The position numbers and the translations under genes were made by a program. A stretch of 39,568 bases of DNA from Dehalococcoidia bacterium (GTDB lineage Bacteria; Chloroflexota; Dehalococcoidia; Dehalococcoidales; UBA1222): the NCBI GenBank assembly GCA_003597995.1, contig QZJY01000014.1:1-39568 (forward strand), given 5' to 3'. The notes beneath the pieces were generated by a model. The model was given only the letters and a program-made list of their open reading frames with translations, ran no database searches and was not told where the DNA came from. Shown piece after piece: positions 3,578-31,173 of this stretch; within the stretch, counting starts at the first letter, position 1, and the number at the start of each line of letters is the position of its first letter.

Positions 3578-6445
3578 TTACCAGCGCAGGGGTTTCTGCC
3601 ATGACTCTTTGAGCGTTTTTATCGGGAGCGAGATGACCAGTTTACCCTTGAGTCCCTTGACTTTGAGTGTATTACCGGGCGTCACCTTGCCGATAAGGGC
3701 GAAAGAGTTGCCGCGCAGCGTATTCTCGAACTCCTCCTGGTTGCCGGGTTCTACCTCAACCAGAAAACGCGAGTTGGACTCGGAGAAAAGTAAAACGTCG
3801 TCGCGCTCGATGTCCTCGCCAGTCGGAATTTTCCCTAGCGAGACCTCCGCCCCCAGGTTTCCGGCGAAGGCCATCTCGGCCAGCGCCACCCCCAGCCCTC
3901 CCTCCGACAGGTCGTGGCATGATTTGACCAGGCTCATCGAGGTTGCCAGGCTCAGGCTGTCCATCAGCTTGCGCGAGGTTTCGGGCCTGACCTGGGGAGA
4001 ATTGTTTCCCACATAGCCTAGCCGCGAGTAATACTCGGAGCCGCCGAGCTCAGCGAAAGTTTGGCCGACGAGATACAGGAGGTTCCCCGCTTGTTTTAAG
4101 TCCATGGAGATGGCTTTAGACGAATCCTCCATTACGGCCATAGCCGAGATGAGCAGCGTGTGCGGGATGGAGATGCGCTTGCCCTCATGCTCGAACTCGT
4201 TGTTCAGGCTGTCCTTGCCCGAAATGAAAGGCGTTTTATAAGCCAGTGACATGTCATAGCAAGCCTGAGACGCTTTCACCAGCGCCCCCAGGCTCTGTTT
4301 GTCCCGGACGCTGCCCCAGCAGAAATTATCCAGCAGCGCCGCCTGTTTCAGGCTGCCGCCCACGGCGATGATTTGTCTAAGAGCTTCATCTATGGCGGAG
4401 GCAGCCATCCAGTAGGGGTTGACGTCGCCGTAGCGCGTGTTGATGCCGTTGGAAATAATCAGCCCGCGGCTGGACGTTGCCACCGGTTTAATGATGGCGG
4501 CATCGCCCGGTCCGTCCTCGGCTTCCCCGACGAGGGGCTTGAGCACGCTGGCGCCCTGCACCTCGTGGTCGTACTGGCGGATGACCCATTCCTTGCTGCA
4601 CACGTTCCATGCCCCCAGTATCTTGAGCAGCGTGTCGTTATAATCGCCGGAAGGCGCGAGTTCCGGTTCGGGATGTATAGGCCGGGTCCATTCGGCAGCC
4701 AGCGACATTTGCGGCCTGCCGCCGTGCAGGAACTCCATTTGAAGGTCGCAGACGGTGTGCTCTTTATAATACAGGGTTAATTTCTTGTCGTCGGTGAACT
4801 CGCCGATGACGGTAGCTTCCGCCCCTTCCGCGGCGAATATCTCCAGCAGCTCTTCAACATTGGCCGGAGGCACGGCCAGCAGCATGCGCTCCTGCGACTC
4901 AGATATCCATATCTCGGAGTACGACAGTCCGGCATATTTGAGCGGCACTTTATCGAGGTAGACCTTGACGCCCGTCTCTTCGCCCATCTCGCCCACGGCG
5001 GAAGACAGTCCCCCGCCGCCGCAATCGGTGATGCGCGAGAAGAGCTTTTTGTCTCTGGCTTTTAAGAGGCCGTCGAGCACCTTCTTCTCCACGATGGCGT
5101 TGCCTATCTGCACCGAGGTAAACGAGAGCTCGGTCGAATCGCGCGTCAGCTGTTCCGAGGCGAAGGTGACGCCGTGTATGCCGTCGCGCCCGGTGCGCCC
5201 GCCCGCCAGCACCACCTTATCTCCTGGCTTTTGTTTGCCCTGCTGCGACATGTCCTTGGGCATGATGCCCACCGTGCCGCAGAAGACCAGCGGGTTGGCG
5301 GTGTAACGCTCGTCGAACAGGATAGCCCCATTAAGCGTGGGGATGCCCAGGCGGTTGCCGTAATCGGCTACCCCCGCCCTTACTCCCTTGAAGACCCGTC
5401 TGGGATGCAGCACGCCCGGAGGCAGGCGGTTGAAATCGAAATCCGGCGGGCCGAAGCAGAAGACGTCGGTGTTGGCGATGGGTTTGGCTCCCAGCCCTGT
5501 CCCCATGACGTCGCGCACCACCCCGCCCACGCCGGTGGCCGCCCCGCCGTAAGGCTCGATGGCGGAGGGGTGGTTGTGCGTCTCCACCTTGAAGCAGACG
5601 GCCCAGTCGCCGTCGAAGTCGATAACGCCGGCGTTGTCCCGGAAAACGGAGAGGCACCACGGCGGCGAAAGCTCCTTGGTGGCTTTCATGACCGTCGCTT
5701 TGAGCAGGTTGTCGATGCTCTGCCCCTCGAAATCGAAGCGCGCCTTGAAGGTCTTGTGCACGCAGTGCTCGCTCCAGGTCTGCCCCAGCGTTTCCAGCTC
5801 CGCATCGGTAGGGTTGCGCTCAAGCTTGTTGTAATACTCTTTGACCGCCGCAATTTCCGGGGTGTTGAGGCTGTAGTCGCGCCCTATCTGCGAGAGCTGT
5901 TCCGAGGTCGCTCCGAGCAGGTCGATATGCCTCAGCTTGAAAACATACTTCGGGCTTTCGGGGAAGGCTTTAGGCGTTTCCTTAACTACATGCTGGATGA
6001 TGGGGTTGACCAGCAGCCGGGCTTTTATCATGTCCAGCTCGCTTGAGTTGAGAATACCCTGTATGCGGTAGCGCTGGGCCGTCTTGGCGGCGCGGATGGT
6101 GGTTATGCTCATGTTGGAGAGCGCCTGCATCAGCGTTTCTTCCACCGGGTCGGTGACGCCGGGGTTATAGGTTACGGTGATGTTGTGAATCTCGGCAGTG
6201 TCGGCGTTCTGGAGGGGCGAGTCCGCCTGAGGCGGATACTCCTGCGTGATGGGGTCGACCAGCAGCTCGCGGGTGATGCGTTCCAGTTCTTTAGGCGTGA
6301 GCGAGCCGTCCAGCCAGTAGAAATCGCTGACGGTTACGTAGATGTCTTTCTTATGGATGCCCAGGTCGTGGATGCCACGCACTATACCGGCACCGCGCGG
6401 GTCGGGCTGTCCCTGCTTCAGGCATACTTCGATGCTATAAATCAA
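3578..6445 (-). CDS. purL: PurS-PurL fusion: phosphoribosylformylglycinamidine synthase synthetase subunit
   Basis: This 955-residue protein converts FGAR to FGAM using ATP and PurQ-derived ammonia. Residues 1-75 and 86-160 are two PurS-like modules (MIYSIEVCLK... and IHNITVTYNPGVTDP...), taking the place of a free PurS. The PurL catalytic body follows, with TWSEHC (about 223-228), the ATP/metal segment KVETHNHPSAIEPYGGAATGVGG, DCGGGGLSSAVGEMGEE, GKDSL and HDLSEGGLGVALAEM. The start is TTG at 6445, supported by GGAG six bases upstream. Residues 70-75 (YPPQAD), in the linker between the PurS modules, are encoded by a 15-bp palindrome (6222-6236) that also occurs between genes at 15531-15545. 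It is probably transcribed with purQ. Confidence 0.95.
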   Translation of the reverse strand: MIYSIEVCLKQGQPDPRGAGIVRGIHDLGIHKKDIYVTVSDFYWLDGSLTPKELERITRELLVDPITQEYPPQADSPLQNADTAEIHNITVTYNPGVTDPVEETLMQALSNMSITTIRAAKTAQRYRIQGILNSSELDMIKARLLVNPIIQHVVKETPKAFPESPKYVFKLRHIDLLGATSEQLSQIGRDYSLNTPEIAAVKEYYNKLERNPTDAELETLGQTWSEHCVHKTFKARFDFEGQSIDNLLKATVMKATKELSPPWCLSVFRDNAGVIDFDGDWAVCFKVETHNHPSAIEPYGGAATGVGGVVRDVMGTGLGAKPIANTDVFCFGPPDFDFNRLPPGVLHPRRVFKGVRAGVADYGNRLGIPTLNGAILFDERYTANPLVFCGTVGIMPKDMSQQGKQKPGDKVVLAGGRTGRDGIHGVTFASEQLTRDSTELSFTSVQIGNAIVEKKVLDGLLKARDKKLFSRITDCGGGGLSSAVGEMGEETGVKVYLDKVPLKYAGLSYSEIWISESQERMLLAVPPANVEELLEIFAAEGAEATVIGEFTDDKKLTLYYKEHTVCDLQMEFLHGGRPQMSLAAEWTRPIHPEPELAPSGDYNDTLLKILGAWNVCSKEWVIRQYDHEVQGASVLKPLVGEAEDGPGDAAIIKPVATSSRGLIISNGINTRYGDVNPYWMAASAIDEALRQIIAVGGSLKQAALLDNFCWGSVRDKQSLGALVKASQACYDMSLAYKTPFISGKDSLNNEFEHEGKRISIPHTLLISAMAVMEDSSKAISMDLKQAGNLLYLVGQTFAELGGSEYYSRLGYVGNNSPQVRPETSRKLMDSLSLATSMSLVKSCHDLSEGGLGVALAEMAFAGNLGAEVSLGKIPTGEDIERDDVLLFSESNSRFLVEVEPGNQEEFENTLRGNSFALIGKVTPGNTLKVKGLKGKLVISLPIKTLKESWQKPLRW
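6222..6236. repeat. 15-bp palindrome inside purL
   Basis: TCCGCCTGAGGCGGA is an inverted repeat with a one-base centre. The same element, in the opposite orientation, occurs between genes at 15531-15545, and a variant with paired changes occurs at 2412-2426. Here it lies in frame within purL and encodes part of residues 70-75. Confidence 0.85.
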
Positions 6446-7507: not shown

Positions 7508-7880
7508 AGTTTTATATCTCCTGAGACCTATAATCTAGCACAAATTCGGGAGATTGTGAAATAAAAAGCGGAATATCCATGCTGGAGGGCATAAAGGATG
7601 GCCGAAGCATCTGGAGGGGAGGAATCCGCTGATTTCCTCTCCCATCGCGGAAGAGGTTAGGTAAGGGTGTATTCCCCCAATCAGTCTCTCCCTTTGGAAA
7701 GGGGAGATTAAGCCTGCACTGAGCCCCATCAGTCGGGCGAATGTGAGGGATTCTTTCTGCTATGCTACTCACAATTGCATAAAAAGACTCCCGTTGCTAG
7801 GAAGCCCGATATAAATATTGAACTTATCGCCTATACGCAGAGGGCTTGCGACATATCGCCACGCTCCCTATAATGTCCGC
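7508..7880. repeat. Gene-free stretch with a repeat copy carrying an insertion
   Basis: The stretch separates the divergent pdxS and the gene at 7881. At 7684-7779 lies a copy of the main repeat: CTCTCCCTTTGGAAAGGGGAGA then ATTAAG, about 33 inserted bases, AGGGATTCTTT, and finally ACAATTGCA. The promoter for the next gene is at 7846-7874. No coding sequence is credible in the rest. Confidence 0.65.
7846..7874 (+). promoter_or_regulatory. Sigma-70-type promoter placed for a leaderless transcript
   Basis: The -35 box is TTGCGA (7846-7851), the spacer is 17 bases, and the -10 box is a perfect TATAAT (7869-7874). The ATG at 7881 comes only six bases after the -10 box, where transcription would be expected to start, and no ribosome-binding site exists between them. 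Confidence 0.75.
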
Positions 7881-8303
7881 ATGATTCCGCAAGAAGCTCC
7901 TCAAACAGCAGCACTGGACTACCGCGTAAGAAGCGGGGCGGACCAGTTCTACTGGATCGCCGGCCTCGGCGTGGCCAACTCTATCCTGTATGCCATCAAC
8001 GCCGTTCTATTTTTCCCTATGGGTCTGGCGGTGACGCAACTGCTGACTGCCATAAGCAGGAGTCAGACGCTCGAGATGCGCGCGGTCAGCGGCCTGGCGG
8101 TGCTGGTATTCCTGGGGATATTCTTACTATCGGGCTACTACGCCAGAAAAGGCGAGCTGTGGGCTTTCATCCTGGGCGGGGCGGTCTATCTCTTCGATGC
8201 GGTGCTGCTGATAATCCTGGGTGACTGGTTTGCGGCGGCCATCCACGGCTTTTTCCTGTATTACATCATCCGCGGGATTATCTTTCTCAAGAAGTCGGAA
8301 TAG
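7881..8303 (+). CDS. Four-helix membrane protein, unknown
   Basis: From the ATG at 7881 the product is 140 residues. A soluble N-terminus (MIPQEAPQTAALDYRVRSGADQ) is followed by hydrophobic stretches near residues 25-47, 70-87, 95-112 and 113-132, predicting four membrane helices, and a charged end (FLKKSE). An upstream TTG at 7818 would add 21 residues, but they overlap the promoter, so the ATG is preferred. The transcript is probably leaderless. The family is not recognised; similar small four-helix proteins are common and mostly uncharacterised. The gene precedes tRNA-Thr on the same strand. Confidence 0.65.
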   Translation: MIPQEAPQTAALDYRVRSGADQFYWIAGLGVANSILYAINAVLFFPMGLAVTQLLTAISRSQTLEMRAVSGLAVLVFLGIFLLSGYYARKGELWAFILGGAVYLFDAVLLIILGDWFAAAIHGFFLYYIIRGIIFLKKSE

Positions 8304-8354
8304 ACTTATCGCGGGAATTCTCTCGCGGAGCTTTTATTAAAAAGCCCCTTTTGC

Positions 8355-8360
8355 TATACT
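8355..8360 (+). promoter_or_regulatory. Probable -10 box of tRNA-Thr
   Basis: TATACT lies 10 bases before the tRNA 5' end. The best -35 candidate, TTTATT at 8333-8338 with a 16-base spacer, is poor. Confidence 0.4.
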
Positions 8361-8370
8361 TTCACTTGAC

Positions 8371-8446
8371 GCCAGCGTAGCTCAGTTGGTAGAGCAGCTG
8401 TTTCGTAAACAGCAGGTCTCGAGTTCGAGTCTCGACGCTGGCTCCA
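8371..8446 (+). tRNA. tRNA-Thr (anticodon CGU)
   Basis: A full cloverleaf can be drawn. The acceptor stem is GCCAGCG / CGCTGGC, the D arm contains AGCTCAGTTGGTAGAGC, and the anticodon stem is GCTGT / ACAGC with loop TTCGTAA, giving anticodon CGT. The T arm contains GTTCGAGTC. The discriminator base is T at 8443, and CCA is encoded at 8444-8446. It reads ACG codons. Confidence 0.97.
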
Positions 8447-8451
8447 ACTGC

Positions 8452-14111: not shown

Positions 14112-14140
14112 ATGACATGCCTTCTGCCTTACGCTATAAT
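14112..14140 (+). promoter_or_regulatory. rsmI promoter
   Basis: ATGACA (14112-14117, five of six bases match TTGACA), a 17-base spacer and a perfect TATAAT (14135-14140). The ATG of rsmI is 11 bases after the -10 box, so the transcript would have a leader of only about five bases. Confidence 0.75.
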
Positions 14141-14151
14141 ATATTGACATA

Positions 14152-14967
14152 ATGCCTACGCTCTACGTTGTGGCCACGCCCATCGGCAACCTGGAAGACA
14201 TGACCTTCCGCGCCGTGCGCATCCTCAAAGAGGTCTCCCTGATAGCTTCGGAGGACACCCGCACCACCGCCCATCTCCTCTCGCGCTACGAGATAAAGAC
14301 CCCCCTCACCAGCTACTTCGAGCATAACAAGAAGGCTAAGCTGGATTACCTCCTCTCGAAGCTGGCCGAAGGCGATGTCGCTCTCGTCTCCGAGGCGGGC
14401 ATGCCGGCCATCTCCGACCCCGGCTACGAGCTGGTTGTCGCGGCGCAGCAGCGAGGTATCCTCGTCGTGCCTGTTCCGGGGGCTTCCGCCTTCATCTCGG
14501 CGCTGGCTGTCTCAGGGTTGCCCACCGACGCCTGCCATTACCTCGGCTTCCTGCCGCGCAAGGCGGGCGACCGCAAACGGCTGCTGGAGTCCGTGACGTC
14601 GGAACGCGTGACGCTGGTGGCCTACGAAGCCCCCCATCGCCTGAATGAGGCATTACATGATATACTGTCTGTGTTGGGCAACCGCCGTATCGCCGTCTGC
14701 CGCGAGCTGACCAAGCTGCACGAAGAGGTCTTTCGCGGCACGGTGCAAGAGGCGATTGACCATTTTATAGAGCCCCGTGGAGAACTGACGCTCATCATAG
14801 AGGGACGGACTGGGGAGCCCGAAAGCGCCGAACCGGAGAAGGTAATCGCGAGGCTCCGCGAGATTCGGGAGTCGGGCGCGTCGGCGAAAGAGGCGACCGA
14901 GCAGGTGTCGCGCGAAACTGGGGTTTCACGCCGCTCACTTTACCGCGAGTGGCTCAAGTTAAAATAG
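14152..14967 (+). CDS. rsmI: 16S rRNA 2'-O-ribose C1402 methyltransferase RsmI
   Basis: This SAM-dependent methyltransferase modifies C1402 in the decoding centre of the 30S subunit. The 271-residue length is typical. It begins with the diagnostic LYVVATPIGNLEDMT, then SEDTRTTAHLL, a YFEHN segment, VALVSEAGMPAISDPGYELV (SAM-binding), PVPGASAFISALAVSGL and LTLIIEGRTG. The last 40 residues form a helix-turn-helix-like tail (KEATEQVSRETGVSRRSLYREWLKL), also normal for RsmI. Transcription probably starts just before the ATG. The next gene begins 24 bases downstream, so rsmI heads a run with the zinc-ribbon protein. Confidence 0.96.
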   Translation: MPTLYVVATPIGNLEDMTFRAVRILKEVSLIASEDTRTTAHLLSRYEIKTPLTSYFEHNKKAKLDYLLSKLAEGDVALVSEAGMPAISDPGYELVVAAQQRGILVVPVPGASAFISALAVSGLPTDACHYLGFLPRKAGDRKRLLESVTSERVTLVAYEAPHRLNEALHDILSVLGNRRIAVCRELTKLHEEVFRGTVQEAIDHFIEPRGELTLIIEGRTGEPESAEPEKVIARLREIRESGASAKEATEQVSRETGVSRRSLYREWLKLK

Positions 14968-21994: not shown

Positions 21995-22822
21995 TTACAC
22001 CTTCTGGTAGCTCTCTTTCAGTAGCAGGGCGTCCTCTTCACGGTTGGGGCTTTCACAGATGACCGTCCCGCCGGCGCCGTGGTCTTTCAGTGCCCTCAGG
22101 AGGTCTTCGTATCTCAGGTCTGAGGAGCGTATCGGCAGGTGTTTCTTCTCTCCGCCTTTGCCGTATTCGATGCCGGAGATGTGGATGTGCATGTCCCCCA
22201 GCGCTTCCTCTCCCAGGCTTTTCTTCAAATCCCTCAGCAAGCCGCTGAATTCCTCGTAAGAGTTGTTGTTGCCGGCACGGGCGTGCCAGTGGGCGAAATC
22301 GATGCAGGGTGCCACCCTCGGCAGCTCGCTGGTGAGCCTTACTATCTCATCTATGGTTCCGAACTGAGTGGGCTTGCCGGCGCTCTCGGGCCGCAGGGTG
22401 ATGGAATTGTCGTCGGCATCCAGCTTTTCTAACACCTCCCCAATAGCTGTTTTAACAGTCTCATATACCTTCTCAGGCGGGTCGCCGAGATAAAAACCGG
22501 CGTGAAACACGATGCTTTTTGCCCCGCAGATGTTGGCTATTTTGGCGGCCTTGTGCAGCATACCCTGGCTGGAATGCAGCTTGGGACGCTCGTGGGCGTT
22601 GAAGTTGAGGTAGTAAGGCCCGTGCACGGAGAGCTTTATTTTATTGTTAAGGGCTATCCCGGCCATGGCCTTCGCGTGGGCTTCGTCGAGATAAACGCCC
22701 TGTACGAATTCAATCTCCATGCAGTCCAGGCCGAGGGCGGCCACACGCCGGATGCCTTCGCCAGTTTCTTGCGGCCAGGTGCTGAGGGGGATGCCGGCGG
22801 TGCCGAAAAGCAGGTTTGCCAT
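21995..22822 (-). CDS. Endonuclease IV-like TIM-barrel protein
   Basis: The product has 275 residues from the ATG at 22822. Metal-binding motifs of the endonuclease IV / xylose isomerase-like barrel are in order: SVHGPYYLN, IVFHAGFY, LRPESAG, CIDFAHWHARAG, DMHIHISG and VICESPN. These give the histidines, glutamates and aspartate expected for a trinuclear zinc site. The likely role is repair of abasic sites in DNA, although some members of this branch have other or unknown substrates. There is no ribosome-binding site. TATACT ends six bases before the ATG, so the transcript is probably leaderless. Confidence 0.82.
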   Translation of the reverse strand: MANLLFGTAGIPLSTWPQETGEGIRRVAALGLDCMEIEFVQGVYLDEAHAKAMAGIALNNKIKLSVHGPYYLNFNAHERPKLHSSQGMLHKAAKIANICGAKSIVFHAGFYLGDPPEKVYETVKTAIGEVLEKLDADDNSITLRPESAGKPTQFGTIDEIVRLTSELPRVAPCIDFAHWHARAGNNNSYEEFSGLLRDLKKSLGEEALGDMHIHISGIEYGKGGEKKHLPIRSSDLRYEDLLRALKDHGAGGTVICESPNREEDALLLKESYQKV

Positions 22823-22828
22823 CAACAG

Positions 22829-22834
22829 AGTATA
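22829..22834 (-). promoter_or_regulatory. -10 box for a leaderless transcript (endonuclease IV-like gene)
   Basis: TATACT on the minus strand, six bases before the ATG at 22822. No convincing -35 box is found at normal spacing. Confidence 0.5.
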
Positions 22835-23690: not shown

Positions 23691-25526
23691 CTACTGCTTG
23701 CGCTCGTAGCTCAGTATCTCCGAGTCCTTGAAGAATAGTTTCACCTCGTGCTCGGCCGTCTTGACCGAATCGGAGCCGTGCACCGCATTGCGCTCGATGT
23801 TTATTCCGAAGTCTTTGCGGAGGCTGCCTGATTCAGCTCTGGCCGGATCCGTCGCTCCCATTACCGCCCGGATGGTGCGTATGGCATCATCGCCCTCGAA
23901 TACGGCGGCCACGATGGGGCCGGAGGTGATAAAACTTATCAGCTCTTTGAAAAAAGGCTTTTCCTTGTGAGGGGCGTAGTGGCGCTCAGCCAAAGCCCGG
24001 TCCATGCGCAGCATTTTGAGGGCTACCAGCGTAAGCCCTGCGCTTTCCAGCCGCCCGATGATAGCCCCGCTGAATCCCCTTTCAACCGCATCCGGTTTTA
24101 CCAGCACCAGTGAACGTTCCATTTTATGACCTCCATTATATTTCAGCCTGCCAGTATCACAGGTTTGGATAAGCTTTTCAATGTCTGAGACGGTTAGTTC
24201 CGCCAGTGAGTCCACCACCACGTCGGCCAGTTTGAGGCTCTCCTTGGGATGGTTGGCAGCCACCCCCACCGAGCGCATGCCAGCGGCGCGAGCCGCCGCT
24301 ACACCTCCCACGGCATCCTCGATGACAGCACAGCAGCGGGGTTCTATGTTCAGCTTCTCGGCGGCCAGCAGAAAGATCTGAGGGTTAGGCTTCCCATTCA
24401 CTACTTCCTCCCCGCTGACGACGGCCTCGAAAAGGCTTTCTATTCCCAGCATCTTGAGGAAAGTGTTGGTATTCTGACGGGGCGCCGAGGAGGCTACTGC
24501 CATTGGTATGTTACTCCTATGAAGCGCCTCAAGCAGCGCCATGGCTCCGGGCATGGGGCCGACGCCCTCGCAGCGCACGGCCTCGCGGAAAAACTCTGTT
24601 TTCTCGCGGCTGATGGAATCTATCTCTTCTTGAGATGTCTGCTGGCCCAGCACGTCCCGGATAATGTCGTCGTTGCGTAAACCGAAACCCTTTTTGAAAT
24701 CCTCGCGGCTGAAAACCACGCCGCGACTCCTGAATACGGCTTGCCATGCTTCGAAATGCTGTGCCGCCGTATTTACTATGGTACCGTCCATATCCCAGAT
24801 GACAGCGATGCGTTTGCAATCCATGGGCGGCGGCATGGCTCCGGCGCTTTTCGATTTGGGCTGGCTGATATGCGGCCGCCTCAAATAGATGGGTTGTAGC
24901 GTGGCGGCATCGTCGTAGAGCCCTTCAGTTAGCCTTTTTTCACCCAGTGTAGCCAGGGACTCCGCACGCCTCAGTCTGACCGCGGTCGGGGGTATGTCCA
25001 CCTTTTCTCCGAGTGTCGTTCTTAGCTGTTCTAACATATCCTGTGTGGGTTCGCCGCAAAAAACGGTCCGCTCCTTGACGCGGTCGCCAAGTTCATTGAT
25101 GGTTATCAGACTTTCGGGGGCCAGGCAGCGCCACTTGCCATCTGTCAGTTGATAAACCGCATGCGTGATTTCGCCTCTTCCTGCGTTAAAAATGGCGCAC
25201 ACAGGCAGGCCGCTCTCTGCGTGCTGATAGGCCGCAGCTTCGAGCGTGCTGACGCCCACTATGGGCACACTCAGGCTAAAGGCCAGTCCTTTGGCAGTTC
25301 CCAGCCCAACTCTCAGCCCGTTGAAACTACCCGGCCCTCTGGCAACGATAATCCCCTTCATATCCTTGATGTTCAGGGAAGACTGCCTTAGCAGCGATTC
25401 CAGGTGTGGCAGCAGCTCGACGGTATGATTTCTGCCGCATTGCCAGGTTATCTCCACCAGGATTTGCCCCTCATGAATAATTGCCAAGCCGGCTATATCG
25501 CTCGATGTGTCGATAGCCAGATACAT
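23691..25526 (-). CDS. TsaB - HAD phosphatase - nucleoside diphosphate kinase fusion
   Basis: One 611-residue frame carries three complete proteins. Residues 1 to about 220 are TsaB, the partner of TsaD in tRNA t6A synthesis (MYLAIDTSSD, HTVELLPHL, GPGSFNGLRVG). Residues about 236-455 are a beta-phosphoglucomutase-like HAD hydrolase (DMDGT with D245/D247, ASSAPR, GKPNP, EDAVGG). Residues 469-611 are a 143-residue nucleoside diphosphate kinase (VKPDAVERG, active H593 in NAVHGSD). The NDK part begins with Met at 24122, preceded by a perfect GGAGGT at 24129-24134, so free NDK may also be made from an internal start. The gene follows tsaE directly (TAG then ATG). Confidence 0.9.
   Translation of the reverse strand: MYLAIDTSSDIAGLAIIHEGQILVEITWQCGRNHTVELLPHLESLLRQSSLNIKDMKGIIVARGPGSFNGLRVGLGTAKGLAFSLSVPIVGVSTLEAAAYQHAESGLPVCAIFNAGRGEITHAVYQLTDGKWRCLAPESLITINELGDRVKERTVFCGEPTQDMLEQLRTTLGEKVDIPPTAVRLRRAESLATLGEKRLTEGLYDDAATLQPIYLRRPHISQPKSKSAGAMPPPMDCKRIAVIWDMDGTIVNTAAQHFEAWQAVFRSRGVVFSREDFKKGFGLRNDDIIRDVLGQQTSQEEIDSISREKTEFFREAVRCEGVGPMPGAMALLEALHRSNIPMAVASSAPRQNTNTFLKMLGIESLFEAVVSGEEVVNGKPNPQIFLLAAEKLNIEPRCCAVIEDAVGGVAAARAAGMRSVGVAANHPKESLKLADVVVDSLAELTVSDIEKLIQTCDTGRLKYNGGHKMERSLVLVKPDAVERGFSGAIIGRLESAGLTLVALKMLRMDRALAERHYAPHKEKPFFKELISFITSGPIVAAVFEGDDAIRTIRAVMGATDPARAESGSLRKDFGINIERNAVHGSDSVKTAEHEVKLFFKDSEILSYERKQ
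24129..24134 (-). promoter_or_regulatory. Ribosome-binding site of ndk inside the fusion frame
   Basis: GGAGGT lies six bases before the ATG at 24122, where the NDK domain begins. It is translated in the longer frame as part of LKYNGGHK. Its perfect spacing suggests that NDK is, or until recently was, started independently (23691-24122). Confidence 0.8.
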
Positions 25527-26021
25527 CTATATATTATCCTTTTTGAGGGGGGCAAGCGCAGCTGTCAGATCCCGAGTCATTGTCTCATAGCGTGTTCCGC
25601 TCGGGAGTATGTCTATGCTGCGCTCGGATTCCCCTGCATAAGCCAGATTGATAGCAATATGCTCCGGCGGCATGAGCGCCACGGCTTTTTCCGCCCATTC
25701 GATGACGCACACACCATGTCCGTAAAGATAATCATCCAACCCCAGCTCGGCAATCTCCTTGAACTCCAACCTATAAAGATCCATATGGTATAGCGGCAGT
25801 CTGCCGGCAAACTCGCGCATCAATACATAAGAGGGGCTGGCGGCGTTCTCCTTCACTCCCAGTCCCTGCGCTATCCCCTGCGCCAGGCAGGTTTTACCCG
25901 CCCCGAGCGGCCCGCTCAAAAGAAGAATGTCTCCCGAGCGCGCCAGTTCACCGATTATGCGGCCGAGTTGCTGCGTTTCTTCGGAGCTACGGCTGATCAG
26001 TTTAAGACTAGCCTTTGCCAA
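25527..26021 (-). CDS. tsaE: tRNA t6A biosynthesis ATPase TsaE
   Basis: TsaE is the ATPase of the TsaBDE complex that makes t6A37 on tRNAs reading ANN codons. From TTG at 26021 the protein has 164 residues: KLISRSSEETQQLGRIIGE, Walker A SGPLGAGKT, SPSYVLMREF (switch), YHMDLYRLE and VIEWAEKA. The frame is open upstream to 26069, but that part lies inside thiL and is not family-like. The chosen TTG overlaps the end of thiL by 14 bases, with GGTGG about eight bases before it. tsaB follows with no gap, consistent with linked function. Confidence 0.93.
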   Translation of the reverse strand: MAKASLKLISRSSEETQQLGRIIGELARSGDILLLSGPLGAGKTCLAQGIAQGLGVKENAASPSYVLMREFAGRLPLYHMDLYRLEFKEIAELGLDDYLYGHGVCVIEWAEKAVALMPPEHIAINLAYAGESERSIDILPSGTRYETMTRDLTAALAPLKKDNI

Positions 26022-27009
26022 AGTGGTCCCACCCGGCCTTGTCGAATTTATAAGGGCGGCCTTTTGCATCTACAGTCTGTACAACTCCCGGGGAGTTTGC
26101 GGTTATCTCACCGATGACGCTCACAGGCAGGCTGGTTTTTGCCTTGACCTTATCAATAACCGCTGCGCTCGCCGTAAAGAGCAATTCATAATCCTCGCCA
26201 CCTCCCAGCGCCATGTCCAGCGCATGCGAGAGAAATGCCTTACGTGCCGCCGGATGAACGGGTATGTGCTCCACATCGATACGCGCTCCCACTTTGCTTG
26301 CCCGGCAGATATGTCCCAGGTCGGCTACCAGTCCATCGCTAATGTCTATGGCAGCCCGCCCGCCTGCGGCCAGTATCATAGCTCCCTCCGCCAGACGGGG
26401 ACAGGGGCTGAGGAATGCCTGTCTGAGTGGAGCGTCCTCAGCGGTAGGGGCAGCTCCGTTGCTGATGAGCCTGAGACCTGCCGCCGCCGCTCCCAGATAT
26501 CCGGTAACTCCTATCAGGTCGCCGGGTTTGGCTGCGGAACGCCTCAACAGCCGCTTGCCCGCGCTTCCGGTGACGGTCAAGCTGATAAACATGGTATTCG
26601 ACGAGGTGATATCACCCCCGGCGATGGCTATTCCAAACTGGTCCCCCAGCTGTATCAAACCCCGGTACAGTTCGGTGACGTCTTCCACGTCGGTGTCGGC
26701 GGGCAGGCCCAGAGTCACCAGGGCGCATTCCGCCGTGCCCCCCATAGCGGCAATGTCGCTCAGGTTGATAGCCAGGGCTTTCCAGCCCAGTTCGCTCCAC
26801 GCCGCCTGGCCTATCTTAAAATGAACGTTCTGGACCAGGCAGTCGGTGGTGGCCAGCGTAATCTCGTCCGTATTCTTCCATGCAGCAGCATCGTCTCCAA
26901 TACCCGCCACTATATTTTTCCACGAAGGACGCTTTACATCCAGTCTCGTTTCTATCATTTTGGCCAGAATTTCGATCAGCCCGAATTCGCCGACTTCAGA
27001 TACTTTCAT
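26008..27009 (-). CDS. thiL: Thiamine-monophosphate kinase ThiL
   Basis: ThiL phosphorylates thiamine monophosphate to thiamine diphosphate, the last step to the active cofactor. The product is 333 residues, usual for the family. Seen in order: GEFGLIEILAK, VAGIGDDAAAW, TTDCLVQNVHF, WKALAINLSDIAAMGG, IAGGDITSS, IGVTGYLGAAAAGL, AIDISDGLVADLGHI and GGEDYELLFT. These are the ATP- and magnesium-binding motifs of the PurM-like fold. The ATG at 27009 lies seven bases after a TATAAT box and no ribosome-binding site is present, so the operon mRNA is probably leaderless at thiL. It heads thiL-tsaE-tsaB/HAD/ndk. Confidence 0.95.
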   Translation of the reverse strand: MKVSEVGEFGLIEILAKMIETRLDVKRPSWKNIVAGIGDDAAAWKNTDEITLATTDCLVQNVHFKIGQAAWSELGWKALAINLSDIAAMGGTAECALVTLGLPADTDVEDVTELYRGLIQLGDQFGIAIAGGDITSSNTMFISLTVTGSAGKRLLRRSAAKPGDLIGVTGYLGAAAAGLRLISNGAAPTAEDAPLRQAFLSPCPRLAEGAMILAAGGRAAIDISDGLVADLGHICRASKVGARIDVEHIPVHPAARKAFLSHALDMALGGGEDYELLFTASAAVIDKVKAKTSLPVSVIGEITANSPGVVQTVDAKGRPYKFDKAGWDHFGKG

Positions 27010-27016
27010 CGTCTGG

Positions 27017-27022
27017 ATTATA
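27017..27022 (-). promoter_or_regulatory. -10 box of the thiL-tsaE-tsaB operon
   Basis: A perfect TATAAT on the minus strand, seven bases before the thiL ATG. The -35 candidate TTGGAG needs a 19-base spacer and is weak. Confidence 0.6.
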
Positions 27023-31059: not shown

Positions 31060-31088
31060 TTGCCTATGTTAAACCCAGATGCTATAAT
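31060..31088 (+). promoter_or_regulatory. Promoter of tRNA-Gln
   Basis: TTGCCT (31060-31065), 17-base spacer, TATAAT (31083-31088). The tRNA begins 12 bases after the -10 box. Confidence 0.85.
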
Positions 31089-31099
31089 GCAAGATGCGC

Positions 31100-31173
31100 T
31101 GGGGAATCGTCTAGTGGTAGGACAGCGGACTCTGGCTCCGCCGGCGAGGGTTCGAATCCTTCTTCCCCAGCCA
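31100..31173 (+). tRNA. tRNA-Gln (anticodon CUG)
   Basis: The acceptor stem is TGGGGAA / TTCCCCA, the D arm TCGTCTAGTGGTAGGA, and the anticodon stem GCGGA / TCCGC with loop CTCTGGC, giving CTG. The T arm is GAGGGTTCGAATCCTTC. Discriminator G is at 31170 and CCA is encoded at 31171-31173. The T1-A72 pair fits tRNA-Gln. Confidence 0.96.

What the first reader, a model, noticed from the sequence alone, without database searches (positions are those of the whole stretch)
7846..7883. Textbook promoter positioned for a leaderless mRNA
TTGCGA-17-TATAAT is followed after only six bases by ATG, so transcription should begin at the start codon. There is no Shine-Dalgarno sequence. The same layout is seen at thiL (TATAAT, seven bases), the endonuclease IV-like gene (TATACT, six bases) and nearly so at rsmI (11 bases). 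Other genes in the window have strong Shine-Dalgarno sites, so two modes of initiation appear to coexist.
Basis: partly seen in the sequence, partly recalled or inferred. Interest (0 to 1): 0.55.

Follow-up and report, generated by a model that had tools for sequence, protein, structure and literature searches.

The report
Leaderless gene promoters in a Dehalococcoidia bacterium
A promoter sits so close to a start codon that the messenger RNA should begin at the start codon itself; this is a known but minority way of starting translation, and in this bacterial group one gene (thiL) shows it in every relative whose start could be read.

Summary
In detail: TTGCGA-17-TATAAT-6-ATG lies at 7846-7883, without a Shine-Dalgarno (SD) core, and the three companion genes are as described. 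The genome is a Dehalococcoidia MAG with an intact anti-SD. In a 43% sample, TATAAT-like boxes peak 6-7 bases before start codons. 30 of 611 called genes have one at 5-8 bases; 0 of 30 have an SD core, against 58 of 79 genes whose box lies 20-40 bases upstream. So two modes of initiation coexist. Shuffles explain about a quarter (25 of 373 first genes observed, 6.6 expected). The focal gene's one close orthologue keeps TATAAT-6-ATG in otherwise changed DNA; a distant one shows no such box. thiL has TGnTATAAT or TGnTATACT 6-10 bases before its start in all 82 genomes of the order with a readable start, own included (101 searched). The endonuclease-IV-like gene and rsmI vary between near-box and SD-led layouts. 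Leaderless genes are known, Chloroflexi included (Zheng 2011). This is a new member of a known kind; the fixation at thiL is the most interesting part. No 5' ends were mapped.

The parts
7846..7851 (+). -35-like hexamer TTGCGA (4 of 6 to TTGACA)
7869..7874 (+). -10 box TATAAT, 17 bases after the -35, 6 bases before ATG
   Evidence: kept in the G004 orthologue
7881..8303 (+). focal gene: 140-aa protein, no Pfam or NCBIfam match, hydrophobic stretches by eye; predicted leaderless
   Evidence: matched in 3 of 101 genomes including its own
27010..27022 (-). TATAAT-7 before thiL, preceded by TG (extended -10)
26008..27009 (-). thiL, thiamine-phosphate kinase, first gene of thiL-tsaE-tsaB; predicted leaderless
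   Evidence: (TIGR01379 above cut-off)
22823..22834 (-). TATACT-6 before the endonuclease IV-like gene
21995..22822 (-). xylose-isomerase-like TIM-barrel / endonuclease IV-like gene; predicted leaderless (below NCBIfam nfo cut-off)
14135..14151 (+). TATAAT-11 (and overlapping TATATT-6) before rsmI; short leader of a few bases or none
14152..14967 (+). rsmI, 16S rRNA C1402 2'-O-methyltransferase
   Evidence: TIGR00096 above cut-off

Best explanation
A housekeeping (sigma-70-type) promoter whose -10 box lies 6 bases before the start codon. RNA polymerase should start at or within a base of the A of ATG, giving a leaderless mRNA, which ribosomes would engage at the 5'-terminal AUG without SD pairing. 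The genome uses this mode for a few percent of genes beside ordinary SD-led ones. Shown: anatomy, positional peak, mutual exclusion with SD, conservation in orthologues. Inferred: the transcription start and the leaderless translation.
For: Layout. Peak of TATAAT-like boxes at gaps 6-7 in 373 first genes: 8 and 11 against about 3 per gap at 12-59. Gap 5-8: 25 observed against 6.55 (sd 2.6, max 14 of 200 shuffles); exact TATAAT 10 against 0.94 (max 5). SD core 0 of 30 in box-near-start genes, 58 of 79 in genes with box at 20-40, 333 of 557 in the rest (Fisher 1.9e-13 and 4.4e-12). Focal orthologue in G004 keeps TATAAT-6-ATG. thiL 82 of 82 readable genomes in the order, own included. Control: of 24 SD-led G000 genes with a start-aligned partner in G001, 0 have a near box there and 21 have SD by the looser definition. 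With gap 6 or 7 the base before the thiL start is a pyrimidine in 26 of 27 and 28 of 32, with gap 8-10 in 12 of 23, which fits a pyrimidine/purine start with +1 at the start codon. Anti-SD intact, so lack of SD is gene-specific.
Against: No mapped 5' ends. The pyrimidine-before-start bias is not significant in the genome's own set (19 of 30 against 299 of 557). About a quarter of the 25 first-gene cases are expected from shuffles. The distant focal homologue in G048 (about 29%) shows no such box. Of 3 near-box G000 genes paired in the first G001 sample, 2 keep the box and rsmI does not. In one search, of 5 pairs that I judged to have true aligned starts, 3 keep a box at gaps 6-10 in G000 and 2 do not. 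Nakagawa 2017 (passages) gives its 2 Chloroflexi species a negative mean on the component it links to leaderless or S1 signals.
Confidence: 0.88

Rival explanations
1. The gene is also or mainly read from a promoter further upstream, giving a 5' leader; the near TATAAT is weak or decorative.
For: Alternative promoters cannot be ruled out from sequence; many genes of this genome have neither an SD core nor a near box (224 of 557), so non-SD leadered starts may exist.
Against: The near box is the only plus-strand promoter-like site found in 7508-8450 by a consensus scan; the neighbour upstream is divergent with 373 bases between, so there is no co-directional gene to read through from; in the G004 orthologue the box and its spacing are kept in otherwise unlike DNA.
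Confidence: 0.07
2. Wrong start codon: the true start is elsewhere (TTG 7818 or an internal codon) and the TATAAT-ATG distance is accidental.
For: The frame is open back to TTG 7818.
Against: TTG 7818 lies upstream of the box and the intervening peptide is not alike in G004 while residues from about 13 on are, so an internal start at GTG 7971 is too late; blind coding score favours 7881.
Confidence: 0.03
3. Chance: an A+T-rich hexamer near ATG without promoter function.
For: Shuffled upstreams still give 6.55 such cases per 373 genes.
Against: Exact TATAAT with a 17-base-spaced -35 and conservation in the close orthologue.
Confidence: 0.02

Closest known systems
Leaderless genes with a TANNNT -10 about 12 bases upstream of the start (Zheng 2011, PMC3160421; passages read)
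   Same: Same layout and same reading; Chloroflexi listed with such genes in 4 of 12 genomes, average 4.7%, TAtaaT-type box at medium G+C. Our 30 of 611 (4.9%, uncorrected) is alike. It also models exchange between leaderless and SD-led orthologues, in Actinobacteria.
   Different: Its main text has no word beginning 'Dehalococc', and the passages I read do not follow single genes such as thiL across an order.
Deinococcus-Thermus '-10-motif adjacent to ORFs' (Zhong 2025, PMC12340547; outline and passages read)
   Same: -10 next to the start codon, leaderless mRNA, a well-spaced -35 (17 +/- 1) enhances expression.
   Different: About one third of genes there; a few percent here. No word beginning 'Chloroflex' in its main text.
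Mycobacterium tuberculosis leaderless transcriptome (Cortes 2013, PMC3898074; passages read)
   Same: TANNNT centred 7-12 bp upstream of start sites; purine start with pyrimidine flank.
   Different: Experimentally mapped; TGn precedes only 7% of TANNNT boxes there, but 82 of 82 thiL boxes here (12 of 30 in the genome's own near-box set).

Membership tests
Bacterial leaderless gene (promoter-adjacent type) | -10 box ending about 5-8 bases before the start codon | tested here: met
   gap 6 at the focal gene; peak at gaps 6-7 in the genome sample
Bacterial leaderless gene (promoter-adjacent type) | no Shine-Dalgarno sequence | tested here: met
   focal gene and 30 of 30 near-box genes (core 4-mers); a looser definition flagged 3 of 30
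Bacterial leaderless gene (promoter-adjacent type) | start codon assignment correct | tested here: met
   (coding score and orthologue)
Bacterial leaderless gene (promoter-adjacent type) | transcript 5' end at the start codon | not testable with these tools
   no RNA data
Bacterial leaderless gene (promoter-adjacent type) | translated from a 5'-terminal AUG | not testable with these tools
   needs ribosome profiling or reporter
Sigma-70-type promoter | two hexamers, 16-18 base spacing | tested here: met
   10 of 12 matches, spacing 17
Genome-wide loss of SD use | degenerate anti-SD in 16S rRNA | tested here: not met
   GGATCACCTCCTTTCT intact

The most novel reading that the evidence does not exclude
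In Dehalococcoidia the thiL-tsaE-tsaB message is held leaderless by selection: an extended -10 (TGnTATAAT or TGnTATACT) has stayed 6-10 bases from the thiL start in every genome of the order with a readable start (82 of 82, own included), and a TATAAT at 6-8 bases is there in the 3 readable members of the class outside it, while other genes of the same window (nfo-like, rsmI) move between near-box and SD-led layouts. If so, expression of the t6A tRNA-modification and thiamine-phosphate kinase genes would be tied to the leaderless mode, for example to the state of the ribosome or initiation factors.
Probability: 0.35. Interest if true: 0.6.

Novelty: new member of a known kind. Interest (0 to 1): 0.4.

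Why it matters
It adds an order of mostly uncultured, partly dehalogenating bacteria (recalled) to those with a clear minority of leaderless genes, shows gene-by-gene switching between leaderless and SD-led layouts within one genus, and offers thiL as a seemingly fixed leaderless gene that could be checked at once in RNA data of a cultured relative such as Dehalococcoides. It also warns that start-codon callers relying on SD signals can miss or shift such genes.

Tried and rejected
The first genome-contig scan, with the methionyl-tRNA synthetase, found no relative; FtsH gave the taxon. A looser SD definition counted 3 of 30 near-box genes and 19 of 82 thiL upstreams as having SD, because it took in 4-mers such as TGAT that the promoter itself can supply. 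With a core definition these became 0 of 30 and 4 of 82; all 4 are GGTG lying across the TG extension, upstream of the box. Two of 82 thiL upstreams have a core 4-mer between box and start. I rejected degenerate anti-SD as a cause. I rejected a genome-wide initiator bias: not significant. Paper searches for leaderless with Dehalococcoid, with Chloroflexota, and with thiamine monophosphate kinase listed 3, 1 and 1 papers, one paper being in two lists. Of these I read passages of one only (PMC10783764) and saw only listings of the others; I saw no report of leaderless genes in Dehalococcoidia, but most subscription journals are not held. The search for experimental start sites in Dehalococcoides listed 6 papers, none of which looked usable by title and abstract start. 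Outside the class, thiL is mostly leadered or without a near box: of 16 upstreams fetched, 2 had no start found; of the other 14, one had the box at gap 7 by script (L305) and a second (L300) by reading the printed letters with a GTG start at the expected place, where the script had taken an ATG 9 bases earlier.

Rows dropped: thiL had a match in 97 of 101 genomes but only 82 had a readable start (30, 52 of 53 fetched and read). The other 15 are partial hits, distant paralogues only, or cut by a contig end (L242). nfo-like: 37 of the 77 genomes with a match were fetched and 35 starts read; rsmI: 30 of 96 genomes with a match, best matches first. All three sets include the window's own gene. 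The G001 comparison used 40 of 57 listed places. 9 had a hit in the G000 sample; I kept 5 with a true aligned start (L324, L333, L341, L342, L344) and dropped 4: L320 (upstream DNA looks coding in both genomes, so an internal ATG), L327 and L332 (hit does not reach the start), L340 (no start codon at the place in G000).

Full report
Check of the observation. The bases are as reported: TTGCGA 7846-7851, 17-base spacer, TATAAT 7869-7874, six bases, ATG 7881. A consensus scan of 7508-8450 gives this as the only plus-strand promoter-like site, 10 of 12 matches. The start codon is sound: a coding-potential caller that sees no upstream sequence chose ATG 7881, and the peptide before it has no likeness to that before the orthologue's start, while the proteins are alike from about residue 13. 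The gene encodes 140 residues, has no Pfam or NCBIfam match and is matched in only 3 of 101 related genomes, one of them its own. A tRNA-Thr gene follows it at 8371.

Where it comes from. The window is part of a 1.80 Mb, 71-contig, 95.5% complete genome. FtsH relatives place it in Dehalococcoidia, the best 78% identical. The 16S rRNA has an intact anti-SD, GGATCACCTCCTTTCT.

Genome test. I called genes in 779,334 bases (window plus 40 stretches, 43% of the genome) with a simple dicodon model of my own, which is not a validated caller. Of 671 genes, 611 have a readable upstream; 373 of these are first-in-unit by a 50-base rule. TATAAT-like boxes (TAnnnT with at least 2 of 3 core matches) in first genes show 8 and 11 cases at gaps 6 and 7 against a mean of about 3 per gap at 12-59. 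That background includes real leadered promoters, so the test is conservative (p = 2e-5). Against 200 dinucleotide shuffles: 25 at gaps 5-8 against 6.55 (maximum 14); exact TATAAT 10 against 0.94 (maximum 5). The split with SD is clean: core SD 4-mers in 0 of 30 near-box genes, 58 of 79 genes with a box at 20-40, and 333 of 557 of the rest. About a quarter of the near-box first genes are expected by chance, so perhaps 3-4% of genes are truly of this kind (my estimate). Five of the 30 are in the window: 7881, 14152 (through its TATATT at gap 6), 22822, 27009 and 19022; the last, eight bases behind ftsH with TAGAAT at gap 5, is likely a false case.

Across the order. TGnTATAAT-N5-8-ATG occurs 1161 times in 101 genomes, against 296 for the pattern read backwards and 686 for the same box at gaps 12-15. 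The near spacing is commoner than the far one in 85 genomes, equal in 4 and rarer in 12. These counts are of patterns, not of called genes.

Orthologues. The focal gene's orthologue in G004 (47-50%) keeps TATAAT-6-ATG in otherwise unlike DNA; the more distant match in G048 (about 29%) does not show it. thiL: 82 of 82 readable genomes in the order, own included, carry TATAAT (77) or TATACT (5) at gaps 6 (27), 7 (32), 8 (11), 9 (9) or 10 (3), all 82 with TG one base before the box; 70 start with ATG and 12 with GTG. 81 of the 82 upstreams are distinct. Three of four class members outside the order have TATAAT at gaps 6-8; the fourth had no resolved N-terminus. Outside the class it is rare: 2 of 14 readable, one of them read by eye. 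tsaE follows thiL closely on the same strand in 28 of 30 loci (of the other two, one locus ends 66 bases on and one has room but no match), and tsaB is found in 23 of 30 loci, several of which end too soon to show it, so this start heads a conserved operon. The nfo-like gene has a near box (gap 4-10) without SD in 23 of 35 and is SD-led in 10 (6 with the box 11-39 bases up and 4 with no box found); 2 have a far box and no SD. rsmI has a near box in 5 of 30 and a far box in 22, 16 of these with SD; 3 have no box found. In the same genus, a first sample gave 35 start-aligned pairs: of 3 near-box G000 genes 2 keep the box in G001 and rsmI does not; of 24 SD-led G000 genes 0 have a near box in G001. 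A second look from the G001 side gave five pairs: three keep a box at gaps 6, 9 and 10 in G000 and two do not; in one of those two (L342) G000 carries the same TGATATAAT 29 bases before the start, against 7 in G001, with an SD in between.

Mechanism. The -10 box occupies about -12 to -7, so a gap of 6 puts +1 on the A of ATG (established promoter geometry, recalled). In thiL the base before the start codon is a pyrimidine in 26 of 27 at gap 6 and 28 of 32 at gap 7, but only 12 of 23 at gaps 8-10, as expected if +1 is the start codon in the first two groups; related genomes are not independent, so I give no p-value. The genome's own set does not show this significantly (19 of 30 against 299 of 557). 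Translation would then begin on a 5'-terminal AUG. That step is inferred from work on other bacteria.

What is known. Zheng 2011 (passages) described this signal and lists leaderless genes in 4 of 12 Chloroflexi genomes, average 4.7%. Zhong 2025 (outline and passages) and Cortes 2013 (passages) give experimental counterparts in other phyla. Nakagawa 2017 (passages) gives its 2 Chloroflexi species a negative mean on the component tied to leaderless or S1 signals, so such a signal is not strong in every Chloroflexi genome. A 2024 survey lists Dehalococcoidia at 59% SD (passage), in line with our 340 of 611. The finding is therefore a new member of a known kind; the fixation at thiL I did not find in print.

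Noticed in passing
window 26008-27009 and orthologues L105-L134, L215-L267: thiL keeps an extended -10 6-10 bases before its start in 82 of 82 genomes of the order with a readable start (own included), heading thiL-tsaE-tsaB.
   Followed up: yes
window 14135-14152 and L135-L164: rsmI has a TATAAT-like box in 27 of 30 loci but the leader length varies, from none in some relatives to SD-bearing leaders of roughly 20-25 bases in others: a switching start.
   Followed up: partly
window 23691-25526 (-): One 611-residue ORF joins TsaB, a HAD hydrolase (beta-phosphoglucomutase-like) and nucleoside diphosphate kinase: a fused protein behind tsaE.
   Followed up: no
window 31083-31100 (+): TATAAT just before tRNA-Gln (31100-31173), probably its promoter; the nearby ATG is accidental.
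   Followed up: no
window 3578-6445 (-): PurL-like protein with a weak PurS-like match towards the N-terminus of the same ORF.
   Followed up: no
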